A stretch of 64,000 nucleotides of DNA from Candidatus Woesearchaeota archaeon (GTDB taxonomy: Archaea > Nanobdellota > Nanobdellia > Woesearchaeales > GW2011-AR4), in contig JACPMX010000008.1 in assembly GCA_016185755.1 (NCBI GenBank), forward strand, positions 1-64,000, written 5' to 3'. Under the pieces are notes generated by a model that did not search any database, was not told where the DNA came from, and saw only the letters and a list, made by a program, of their open reading frames with translations. The position numbers and the translations under genes are program-made. This document shows positions 48,899-55,374 of the stretch, piece by piece. The stretch's first letter is position 1; each line of letters opens with the position of its first letter.

Positions 48899-49001
48899 GG
48901 GCCCATAGCTCAGTCTGGTTAGAGCGACGGTCTTATATGACTCTGCTTTAAGCATATCCTAGGCTAGCCGTAGGTCGAGGGTTCGAATCCCTTCGGGCCC
49001 A
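48899..49001 (+). tRNA. tRNA-Ile(UAU) with anticodon-loop intron
   Basis: Folds as a tRNA: acceptor GGGCCCA with CGGGCCC, D-stem GCTC/GAGC, anticodon stem ACGGT/GCCGT, variable AGGTC, T-stem GAGGG/CCCTT with TTCGAAT loop. The 35-nt region between the anticodon stem halves implies a 28-nt intron. With the standard site after position 37 the loop becomes CTTATAA, anticodon UAU for Ile AUA. The last acceptor pair (A7-C66) is a mismatch. Archaea usually read AUA with an agmatidine-modified CAU tRNA, so UAU is noteworthy. A shifted intron would change the anticodon, so the identity is moderately sure. Confidence 0.8.
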
Positions 49002-50540: not shown

Positions 50541-50688
50541 ACAGAATTGAAATCCAAAAAAAAGCAGATTCTCTTTTGGAGTTTCCAGAATTGTTATTGG
50601 CGCATACTGGAGAGTCAACCCCTGTTGTATTCTCAACATACAAAAGCGTATGACAAAGCTTTAAAAATGCCATATCCCCACTAAGACT

Positions 50689-50916
50689 GCCAAGGTGGCA
50701 GAATCCGGCTATTGCGCTCGCCTCGAAAGCGTGTGTCCGCAAGGACTTCTCGGTTCATCGCAAAAACTGAGAGTTTTTGAGAACTTGGAATTGCAAGTGC
50801 CACTGTCGCATAATCTGGTAGTGCGGCGGTCTCGAAAACCGCTTCCCGAAAGGGATTCTCGGTTCAAATCCGGGCAGTGGCGTTAATTGCAATTCCAAGT
50901 AATCCGGGCCTTGGCG
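50689..50916 (+). tRNA. Outer tRNA-Ser(CGA) interrupted in the T-loop
   Basis: Exon 1 (50689-50757) and exon 2 (50901-50916) assemble into a type II tRNA: acceptor GCCAAGG/CCTTGGC perfect, D-stem GCAG/TTGC, anticodon arm CTCGC-CTCGAAA-GCGTG (one T-T mismatch, anticodon CGA), long variable arm GTCC-GCAA-GGAC, T-stem CTCGG/CCGGG, T-loop TTCA plus AAT making TTCAAAT. The 143-nt insert (50758-50900) between loop positions 57 and 58 holds an 8-bp hairpin (CAAAAACT/AGTTTTTG), a 14-bp inverted repeat pair (50783-50796 and 50887-50900) and, inside it, a complete second tRNA-Ser. Exact boundaries may shift by a base. Confidence 0.85.
50799..50882 (+). tRNA. Inner tRNA-Ser(CGA), nested in the outer tRNA's insert
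   Basis: An uninterrupted type II tRNA: acceptor GCCACTG/CAGTGGC perfect, D-stem GCAT/GTGC, anticodon arm GCGGT-CTCGAAA-ACCGC perfect, variable arm TCCC-GAAA-GGGA, T-stem CTCGG/CCGGG with loop TTCAAAT, discriminator G. It is expected to be functional. It is entirely enclosed by the inverted repeat arms and thus lies within the transcript of the outer tRNA-Ser, with which it shares anticodon and T-arm but not acceptor sequence. Confidence 0.93.
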
Positions 50917-50971: not shown

Positions 50972-51979
50972 ATGCCAAAACAAACGATCTCACTGTGCAT
51001 GATAGCCAAGAATGAAGAAAAATACCTGGAGCAATGCCTTGACTCTGTCAAGGACTTAGCTGATGAAATAATCATTGTAGATACTGGAAGCACCGACAAG
51101 ACAAAGGAAATAGCGAAGAAGTTCAATGCAAAAATCATAGACTTCAAGTGGATTGATGATTTTTCCGCTGCAAGGAACGAGAGCCTGAAGCACGCTACAA
51201 AAGACTGGATTCTGGTGCTGGATGCTGACGAGGCTATTGATAAAGAGGATTTGGAAAAAATAAAAAAAGAGATTGAAAATGCCGGAGATATTGCTGGGTT
51301 TTCTATTGAGCAGCGCTCTTATATAAAAGAGTATTTTGAAGGCGCCGTTGGCAACGACTCTGAGTTTGAAGCTTCAAAAAAATATCCATTCTACATTTTG
51401 CACAATCTTGTAAGGCTGTTCAGAAACGGCATAGGGCTTAGTTTCAGGCATAAAGTCCACGAGCTGGTTGAAGACTCAATAAAGGAAAAGGGCTTAAGGT
51501 ATGAAAAAGCGGGAATTATAATTCATCATTTCGGCTCTGTAAAGGAAGCAGGCCTGATAGAGGACAAGGTGGACATGTATTCAAAAATATTGCTCAGGCA
51601 GCTGGAGGATGACCCGGGCAGCGCAAGATACAACTACCAGGCTGCAAGGATGTTTCTTGGAAAAAATGACTTCAGCAATGCATTGAAATACTTTGAAAAA
51701 GCAGCAAAAATAAACCCGAACTACAAGCTTGTATTTTCAGAGATGGCAAAAATCTATCTGCAGATGAATGACAAGAACAGGGCAATAGAAAACTTCAAAA
51801 AAAGCATAAAGCAAAACCCGGACAATCCGTCTCCTGCAAACAACCTTGCCGTTGTTTACATGTCGATTGGCAAGTTTGACAAGGCGAAGGAAATTCTTGA
51901 AGAGCAGCTGAAAAGGCATCCGGAAAACGGGGCTTTGAAGCAGAATCATGAAGAGTGTTTGAAGAATTTGAAAAATTAA
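50972..51979 (+). CDS. GT2 glycosyltransferase with C-terminal TPR repeats
   Basis: A 335-residue protein. Residues 1-240 form a GT2 domain: SLCMIAKNEEKYLEQCLDSVKD, EIIIVDTGSTDKTKEIAKKF and ILVLDADEA (DxD). Residues 240-330 contain TPR repeats (RYNYQAARMFLGKNDFSNALKYFEKAAKINPNY, VFSEMAKIYLQMNDKNRAIENFKKSIKQNPDN, PANNLAVVYMSIGKFDKAKEILEEQLKRHPEN). The domain pairing is known from SunS-like and other bacterial glycosyltransferases; acceptor unknown. The NTP-transferase gene follows with 4 bases between. Confidence 0.88.
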   Translation: MPKQTISLCMIAKNEEKYLEQCLDSVKDLADEIIIVDTGSTDKTKEIAKKFNAKIIDFKWIDDFSAARNESLKHATKDWILVLDADEAIDKEDLEKIKKEIENAGDIAGFSIEQRSYIKEYFEGAVGNDSEFEASKKYPFYILHNLVRLFRNGIGLSFRHKVHELVEDSIKEKGLRYEKAGIIIHHFGSVKEAGLIEDKVDMYSKILLRQLEDDPGSARYNYQAARMFLGKNDFSNALKYFEKAAKINPNYKLVFSEMAKIYLQMNDKNRAIENFKKSIKQNPDNPSPANNLAVVYMSIGKFDKAKEILEEQLKRHPENGALKQNHEECLKNLKN

Positions 51980-53405: not shown

Positions 53406-53496
53406 TGCCGGTGAGGAGATTTGAACTCCCGACGGACACCTTTCAGGCGCAAAAGCCTTATGAGAGTGTCACTCTGCCAGGCTGAGTTACACCGGC
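53406..53496 (-). tRNA. tRNA-Met(CAU), elongator type, with intron
   Basis: On the minus strand: acceptor GCCGGTG/CACCGGC perfect, D-stem ACTC/GAGT, anticodon stem ACACT/GGTGT, T-stem GGGAG/CTCCT with loop TTCAAAT, discriminator A. The 24-nt loop region implies a 17-nt intron after position 37 (with a GGC/GCC hairpin), leaving loop CTCATAA and anticodon CAU. Acceptor and D-arm resemble archaeal elongator tRNA-Met, but agmatidine tRNA-Ile2(CAU) is not excluded. Confidence 0.87.
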
Positions 53497-54543: not shown

Positions 54544-55374
54544 CTACATTATCGGCAGGCTGTCAATCGGGCTTTTTGTGCCAATCATTTTGGGAGATGC
54601 AATATGAAGGTATACCATTGTTGTTTCTGCGCTGCTGTGCCCCAGCAATGACTGGACTTCTGCCACGCTGCTTCCGTTCTCTATGAGGTGGGTTGAAAAG
54701 CTGTGCCGCAAAGTGTGCGGATGGGCGTGCTTGGCTATTTTTGCGTTTTTAACGGCATTTTTTATTACGGATCTTACGGACGCTGTTGTAAGGTGGCCAT
54801 TAAATCCCCTAAAAAGATAAGAACCAGATGATGTGCATTCTTTTGAAATGTATGAAGCCAGATCTTCCTTGATGCTCTCTGCTATGACAAACATCCTGTC
54901 CTTGTTGCCTTTGCCGTGCCTCACCCACCCATAGCCATTTTTGATGTCAAGATTTTCCGGCTTAAGGTGAACAAGCTCGCTCACCCTCAATCCTGCAGAA
55001 TACATCAGCTTTGCCATAAGCCTGTGCTTAGGATTGCTTATTGAATTGAGCAGCCTTGCAATTTCTTCTTTGGTTAAAACTATTGGCAGTGATTTAGGGG
55101 TTTTTGAGTATCTTATATTGACCATTAACAGCCGGTTTAAGGTGCTGCCATAAAAAAACTTCAATGCGTTTAAGTTTACATTAATTGTGTTGCCGCATGC
55201 GCCTTTCCCAATCATGATGTCAAGGTAGGACTTGATATCGGCCTTCTTGATTTCATTTGGCTCCTTTTTGCACCAATTGAAGAATTTTCTGACGCAATAC
55301 CGGTAAGTCCTTATTGTTTTGTGGCTTAATCCCCTCCTAAGCCCTTCTTTCCTTATCAATTCAGGTATATCCAT
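54544..55374 (-). CDS. Tyrosine recombinase at the head of the cassette array
   Basis: A 276-residue phage-integrase family recombinase. N-terminal SAM-like domain: RRGLSHKTIRTYRYCVRKFFNWCKKEP. Catalytic domain with all key residues: arginine in YSAGLRVSELVHL, lysine in HGKGNKDR, HxxR in HPHTLRHSFSTHL, histidine in LGHSSAETTMVYLH and the following tyrosine. The ending KSPIDSL recalls integron and Bacteroidetes-type integrases, but the IntI-specific insert is not seen; archaeal XerA is a close alternative. The gene is transcribed away from the array, with its 5' end about 200 bases from the first core site, as in integrons. Confidence 0.92.
   Translation of the reverse strand: MDIPELIRKEGLRRGLSHKTIRTYRYCVRKFFNWCKKEPNEIKKADIKSYLDIMIGKGACGNTINVNLNALKFFYGSTLNRLLMVNIRYSKTPKSLPIVLTKEEIARLLNSISNPKHRLMAKLMYSAGLRVSELVHLKPENLDIKNGYGWVRHGKGNKDRMFVIAESIKEDLASYISKECTSSGSYLFRGFNGHLTTASVRSVIKNAVKNAKIAKHAHPHTLRHSFSTHLIENGSSVAEVQSLLGHSSAETTMVYLHIASPKMIGTKSPIDSLPIM

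What the first reader, a model, noticed from the sequence alone, without database searches (positions are those of the whole stretch)
50689..50916. A complete tRNA-Ser nested inside the T-loop insert of another tRNA-Ser
The outer acceptor halves GCCAAGG (50689) and CCTTGGC (50909) pair perfectly, T-stem CTCGG/CCGGG closes, and the T-loop becomes the canonical TTCAAAT only after removing 50758-50900. That 143-nt insert contains a second full tRNA-Ser(CGA) (50799-50882) with all stems intact, enclosed by a perfect 14-bp inverted repeat. Maturation raises a conflict: RNase P and tRNase Z processing of the inner tRNA would cut the outer precursor. After such cutting the inverted repeat could still hold the two outer halves together, like split tRNAs joined by leader helices. 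The locus could thus make either one or both tRNAs from one transcript.
Basis: partly seen in the sequence, partly recalled or inferred. Interest (0 to 1): 0.95.

Follow-up and report, generated by a model that had tools for sequence, protein, structure and literature searches.

The report
A tRNA gene nested inside another
In a groundwater archaeon (a Woesearchaeote), one complete serine-tRNA gene sits inside the T-loop of a second, otherwise intact serine-tRNA gene; a related species has the same nest, so it is real and evolved, but whether both tRNAs are made, and how the outer one would be spliced, is not shown.

Summary
An outer tRNA-Ser(CGA) (50689-50757 + 50901-50916) is split between T-loop positions 57 and 58 by a 143-nt insert. 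The insert holds a complete tRNA-Ser(CGA) (50799-50882) inside a perfect 14-bp inverted repeat.

Host: Woesearchaeota. A second species of the genus (G006) has the same nest, so it is not an assembly error. None of the other genomes among 353 of the order carries the insert's signature. The genus explains the setting: the same outer gene, often at the same place, carries ordinary T-loop introns (position 59/60, bulge-helix-bulge) in many relatives. G013, sister of the window's genome, has only the inner type there. In G006 the inner tRNA has lost its 3' half while the outer stays intact. Outer exons and inner 5' exon carry no disabling change while the linkers drifted (8 of 61 columns), so selection on both is likely.

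I favour a nested gene in which both tRNAs are or recently were functional; the main rival is a dead outer shell. I found no published tRNA-in-tRNA nest.

The parts
50660..50668 (+). TATA-like box (TTTAAAAAT) about 21-29 bp upstream of the outer tRNA; no comparable box precedes the inner tRNA
   Evidence: read directly; AAAG(C/T)TTTAAA is also retained upstream in G006 although the flanks are otherwise unalignable. Inference that it is the promoter.
50689..50757 (+). outer tRNA-Ser(CGA), 5' exon (acceptor to T-loop position 57, ends CTCGG-TTCA)
   Evidence: orthologous to contiguous or 59/60-intron-containing genes in relatives
50758..50900 (+). 143-nt insert between T-loop positions 57 and 58
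50758..50782 (+). linker hairpin TCGCAAAAACT-GAG-AGTTTTTGAGA; its AACTGAGAG (50765-50773) is also complementary to the outer T-arm 5' strand CTTCTCGGTT (50746-50755)
   Evidence: the 22-mer GGTTCATCGCAAAAACTGAGAG occurs only in G000 and G006 among 353 order genomes
50783..50796 (+). inverted-repeat arm 1, ACTTGGAATTGCAA
   Evidence: in G006 ACTTGGAATTGTT with matching change in the other arm
50799..50882 (+). inner complete tRNA-Ser(CGA), all stems intact
   Evidence: Rfam RF00005 53 bits, ARAGORN, stem check
50887..50900 (+). inverted-repeat arm 2, TTGCAATTCCAAGT
50901..50916 (+). outer tRNA-Ser(CGA), 3' exon (AAT-CCGGG-CCTTGGC-G73)
50972..51979 (+). glycosyltransferase/TPR gene that lies downstream of this tRNA in many relatives (synteny anchor)

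Best explanation
This is a genuine nested tRNA gene. A tRNA-Ser(CGA) gene whose T-loop is a habitual intron site in this genus holds a 143-nt insert carrying a second, independent-type tRNA-Ser(CGA). SHOWN: the architecture; its conservation in two species; no disabling change in the outer exons of both species or in the inner tRNA of the window; inner type alone in G013 and outer alone (inner truncated) in G006. INFERRED: one transcript starts at the outer promoter. The inner tRNA folds on the end of the 14-bp helix and is released by RNase P and tRNase Z. The outer tRNA is matured either from uncut transcripts or from the two remaining pieces, which stay held together by the acceptor stem, T-stem and 14-bp helix, by endonuclease cutting near TTCA/AAT and ligation. 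The linker segment complementary to the outer T-arm may keep that strand from pairing with the identical T-stem of the inner tRNA until the inner tRNA has folded. The splice step has no recognised motif and is the weakest link.
For: Same nest in G006 with species-specific differences. Outer halves are exons of one gene in relatives: contiguous in G003, G005, G015 and G012, or with 59/60 introns in G001, G019, G009, G007, G004 and G016. Outer exons carry no new broken pair or loop change in G000 or G006, while the linkers differ at 8 of 61 columns; random decay of 3-5 changes would leave the exon intact with P about 0.05-0.008 per lineage. Inner 5' exon is identical in G000 and G006, so it was constrained too. 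Each component survives alone in a relative (G013 inner, G006 outer), as expected if both were once functional and redundant. The helix is kept in G006 by matching changes on both arms, though only 2-3 pairs differ. No other Ser(CGA) gene appears among the G000 matches, and UCG is used (64 of 673 Ser codons in 29 window genes).
Against: No BHB motif fits TTCA^AAT in G000 or G006, in one or two steps, though the same scan ranks the true 59/60 introns of relatives first. Only one EndA-type gene was found per genome in nearly all genus members; it aligns with the M. jannaschii alpha4 and N. equitans catalytic subunits, and alpha4 enzymes are reported to need a strict BHB (PMC6379350; PMC4090602). 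The predicted minimum-energy fold does not form the outer T-stem (probability 0.01 or less); forming it costs 2.8-3.6 kcal/mol. G000 and G006 are not sisters, so the nest may have moved sideways recently, which shortens the time over which intactness counts as evidence of selection. No RNA data.
Confidence: 0.47

Rival explanations
1. Only the inner tRNA works in the window's organism. The outer gene was disrupted by the insertion and survives as a promoter and a scaffold helix for the inner tRNA; its exons look intact only because the insertion or transfer is recent.
For: No BHB at the junction and a strict-looking endonuclease. Sister genome G013 keeps only the inner type at this locus. The inner tRNA is perfect. 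Broken outer genes exist in relatives: G018 lacks the anticodon arm, G011 lacks the 5' half, so the outer gene can be lost.
Against: In G006 the inner tRNA has lost its 3' half while the outer exons, including its D-loop and anticodon introns, are intact. Outer exons show no disabling change in either species despite linker drift.
Confidence: 0.35
2. Only the outer tRNA matters; the insert is a removable T-loop intron and the inner tRNA a captured passenger, already dead in G006.
For: G006: outer intact, inner truncated. The genus has many mobile T-loop introns in Ser and Leu tRNAs.
Against: The window's inner tRNA is intact and its 5' exon is identical in three genomes. The same type is the only Ser(CGA) at this locus in G013. 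The insert lacks the BHB of the genus' T-loop introns.
Confidence: 0.12
3. DNA-level accident: a palindromic mobile element of the kind dispersed in these genomes inserted into the T-loop and later acquired a tRNA by recombination between similar tRNA genes; neither the helix nor the order has a processing role.
For: A dispersed double-hairpin repeat of the genus sits in the T-loop of tRNA-Leu(GAG) of G010 at GGGTTC^AAATCC, also without a BHB, with a similar CAAAAAnC..GnTTTTTG hairpin and trailing GAAC. Inner and outer tRNAs share T-arm sequence, giving 48-nt and 18-nt direct repeats.
Against: The inverted-repeat sequence is not a repeat elsewhere: scattered one-mismatch hits, no paired arms. 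It explains origin, not the retention of both tRNAs.
Confidence: 0.04
4. Assembly artefact joining two tRNA genes.
For: Draft metagenome genomes; tRNA repeats can be misassembled. The first whole-genome search shows 16 contigs for the window's genome.
Against: Independent assembly in G006 with its own differences.
Confidence: 0.02

Closest known systems
Archaeal tRNA genes with non-canonical (D-, V-, T-arm) introns, e.g. Thermoproteales with up to three introns, Asgard archaea (PMC4090602, PMC8450103, PMC11291895)
   Same: Insert in the T-loop of a tRNA whose exons rejoin to a canonical tRNA; the same gene has ordinary 59/60 BHB introns in relatives.
   Different: The insert contains a complete second tRNA, sits at 57/58 and has no BHB at its ends.
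Split tRNAs of Nanoarchaeum equitans and Caldivirga (leader/trailer helices, trans-splicing; PMC4090602, PMC3218864)
   Same: After removal of the inner tRNA the two outer pieces would be held by a perfect 14-bp helix.
   Different: Both halves lie in one transcription unit in order, no separate promoter, no BHB at the joint; trans-joining not shown.
tRNA intron gain by mobile-element integration (Caldiarchaeum tRNA-Thr, PMC3293823)
   Same: tRNA gene disruption by recombination involving another tRNA-like sequence.
   Different: No integrase, att pair or element remains here; only a housekeeping-type XerA 3.6 kb away.
Permuted tRNA genes (PMC3218864)
   Same: Unusual order of tRNA segments needing RNA processing.
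   Different: Order here is normal 5' then 3', interrupted by another tRNA.

Membership tests
Archaeal BHB-intron tRNA gene (T-loop intron) | Exons rejoin to a canonical tRNA | tested here: met
   TTCAAAT loop, all stems paired except the shared U28.U42; ARAGORN calls the spliced form Ser(CGA)
Archaeal BHB-intron tRNA gene (T-loop intron) | Bulge-helix-bulge (strict or with most of the central helix) at the exon-intron junction | tested here: not met
   Central helix GGUU:CCAA has 0 of 4 pairs (by hand); no one- or two-step alternative giving TTCRANY in both species. Relatives' 59/60 introns: 3-4 of 4 pairs
Archaeal BHB-intron tRNA gene (T-loop intron) | Position as in relatives (59/60) | tested here: not met
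   Junction is 57/58; relatives use 59/60 or 53/54
Archaeal BHB-intron tRNA gene (T-loop intron) | Splicing endonuclease present in the genome | tested here: met
   One PF01974 gene, G000:C9:19281-19541; closest solved 3iey_A and 1a79_A
Split (trans-spliced) tRNA | Complementary leader/trailer helix between halves | tested here: met
   14/14 pairs; 13 pairs in G006
Split (trans-spliced) tRNA | Halves transcribed as separate genes | tested here: not met
   One locus, same order and strand, one TATA-like box
Split (trans-spliced) tRNA | Joining of the pieces observed in RNA | not testable with these tools
   no transcriptome held
tRNA pseudogene (outer) | Decayed stems or loops | tested here: not met
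   No broken pair beyond one shared with orthologues
Group I intron or other catalytic intron | Match to a known ribozyme family | tested here: not met
   Rfam finds only tRNAs in the window at gathering thresholds
Integrated element at a tRNA attachment site | Integrase and att repeats bounding an element | tested here: not met
   Insert has no ORF-bearing element; nearest recombinase is XerA-type at 54544-55374

The most novel reading that the evidence does not exclude
A nested, self-splitting tRNA gene: excision of the inner tRNA by RNase P and tRNase Z turns the outer tRNA into a two-piece precursor held by the 14-bp helix, which is then joined, so one transcript yields two tRNA-Ser(CGA). 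The nest is an intermediate in tRNA gene replacement (outer type to inner type), with later loss of one or the other in G013 and G006.
Probability: 0.25. Interest if true: 0.92.

Novelty: new variant of a known kind. Interest (0 to 1): 0.74.

Why it matters
Known disrupted tRNA genes are intron-containing, multi-intron, split, tri-split or permuted; the reviews and searches reached here list no tRNA nested in a tRNA. If the outer tRNA is made, maturation of one gene must wait for, or compete with, excision of the other, and a junction without a BHB would need a different cut. Even if the outer is dead, the locus catches a tRNA gene being replaced by another isoacceptor at its own site, and gives a concrete route from an intron to a two-piece tRNA.

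Tried and rejected
Canonical BHB at every junction, then two-step splicing with the linker hairpin removed first: nothing conserved gives a consensus T-loop. A high-scoring BHB-like motif built on the inverted repeat was rejected because it cuts inside the inner acceptor stem and competes with seven Watson-Crick pairs. Inverted repeat as a dispersed repeat or MITE: no paired copies elsewhere. Viral collection: no match to the signature 22-mer. Glycosyltransferase tree alone: unresolved, replaced by a six-gene concatenate, which rests on patchy data. A separate origin for the G006 inner 3' half: no match beyond weak 19-35-nt hits; it reads instead as an anticodon intron followed by a deletion of the 3' exon (read). 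Literature searches for nested tRNA genes in archaea: none found.

Full report
What is there. The finding is exact. The outer tRNA-Ser(CGA) runs 50689-50757 and resumes 50901-50916; the insert 50758-50900 is 143 nt. It consists of a 25-nt hairpin linker (50758-50782), one arm of a perfect 14-bp inverted repeat (50783-50796), a complete tRNA-Ser(CGA) (50799-50882; Rfam 53 bits; ARAGORN) and the other arm (50887-50900). Both tRNAs read the same codon. Only the outer gene has a TATA-like box (50660-50668).

Where it comes from. The genome is a Woesearchaeote: relatives found through the neighbouring glycosyltransferase gene are mostly Candidatus Woesearchaeota groundwater genomes. Contig lengths suggest that G006 is isolate NC_groundwater_555_Ag_S-0.1um_38_11 and G013 is NC_groundwater_559_Ag_S-0.1um_40_64; that identification is an inference.

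Is it real and evolved? G006 has the same nest at an orthologous outer tRNA. It has its own D-loop and anticodon introns in the outer gene, its own repeat tip (arms changed on both sides, 13 pairs kept) and its own flanks, so it is not a copy by misassembly. The signature 22-mer occurs in no other of 353 genomes of the order, at up to three mismatches, nor exactly in the viral collection.

The setting. In the genus the same outer-type gene is often followed by the same glycosyltransferase gene. There its T-loop is contiguous (G003, G005, G012, G015), carries a 59/60 intron with a clear BHB (UUCA pairing UGAA or UGCA; G001, G004, G007, G009, G016, G019), a 53/54 intron (G014), or both (G008) (positions for G008 read by hand). 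The same 59/60 position is used in Ser(UGA) and Leu tRNAs, including Leu of the window's genome. T-arm interruption is therefore common in this lineage, and the nest is an extreme case of it.

Fates of the two tRNAs. G013, sister of the window's genome in a six-gene tree (100%), has only the inner type at this locus, with an anticodon intron. In G006 the inner tRNA keeps its 5' exon and an anticodon intron but its 3' exon is deleted; no tRNA is detected there (reading of the deletion by comparison with L031). Outer exons are intact in both G000 and G006; the U28.U42 mismatch of G000 is shared with G008 and G015. The linkers differ at 8 of 61 columns, whereas the inner 5' exon is identical. A simulation gives P of about 0.05-0.008 for an exon staying intact by chance after 3-5 random changes. 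Because G000 and G006 are not sisters, and fourfold sites of metK and the glycosyltransferase are only 45-48% identical between them, the 87% identical linkers mean either constraint on the linkers or recent sideways movement of the nest. These were not separated, and recent movement would weaken the selection argument.

How it could work. Release of the inner tRNA by RNase P and tRNase Z is expected from general knowledge, since it is a standard tRNA. The outer tRNA is the problem. A scan that ranks the true 59/60 introns first finds no BHB for TTCA^AAT, nor a conserved two-step route. The genome has one detected EndA-type gene, most like the N. equitans catalytic subunit and the M. jannaschii alpha4 enzyme. 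Alpha4 enzymes are described as strict. Some anticodon introns of the genus also have only 2-3 of 4 central pairs, so a looser enzyme, or an unseen partner subunit, is possible. In the predicted fold the outer T-arm 5' strand pairs with the linker rather than with its own 3' strand; forming the T-stem costs 2.8-3.6 kcal/mol. This could prevent mispairing with the identical T-stem of the inner tRNA, but that is speculation.

Judgement. Both tRNAs functional now or until recently: 0.47. Outer a dead shell: 0.35. Outer only: 0.12. The rest is origin stories and artefact. The architecture itself is not in doubt. I found no tRNA-in-tRNA nest in the literature reachable here; most subscription papers were not searchable, so novelty is provisional.

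Noticed in passing
L265 (G010:C4:2490-2656, minus strand): tRNA-Leu(GAG) with a dispersed double-hairpin repeat inserted in its T-loop (GGGTTC^...^AAATCC) in addition to a 59/60 intron; also no BHB at the repeat's ends.
   Followed up: partly
L292, L293, L294, L305, L306, L314, L316, L326-L328 and others: Dispersed repeat of two adjacent hairpins (GAAAAnnn..nnnTTTTC + CAAAAATCTTCGATTTTTG type) in many copies across the genus, with compensated sequence variants; identity of the element unknown.
   Followed up: partly
L005 and L019 (G001, G017): Nearly the same 59/60 intron (TTGCGGAA.GCGAGCATGC..CCGCATGCA) sits in Ser(CGA) of one species and Ser(UGA) of another, suggesting intron movement between tRNA genes.
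   Followed up: no
L004 (G008:C41:19944, minus strand): Two introns in one T-arm (53/54 and 59/60) of the outer-type tRNA-Ser.
   Followed up: partly
L020 (G018) and L267 (G011): Outer-type tRNA-Ser lacking the whole anticodon arm (G018) or its 5' half, fused to a truncated zinc-ribbon gene (G011); broken genes or misassemblies.
   Followed up: no
G000:C3:102367-102412 (L033): tRNA-Ser(UGA) of the window's genome with a long D-arm insert; standard tools find only 21 tRNAs in this genome, probably because many carry introns.
   Followed up: no
window 48899-49001 and 53406-53496: tRNA-Ile(UAU) and a tRNA (called Met CAT, or Phe when introns are allowed) in the same window, the former with an intron.
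   Followed up: no
L002 (G006:C14), inner remnant: Inner tRNA of G006 reads as 5' exon + anticodon intron directly followed by TGGCG: a clean deletion of the 3' exon, to be confirmed with reads.
   Followed up: partly
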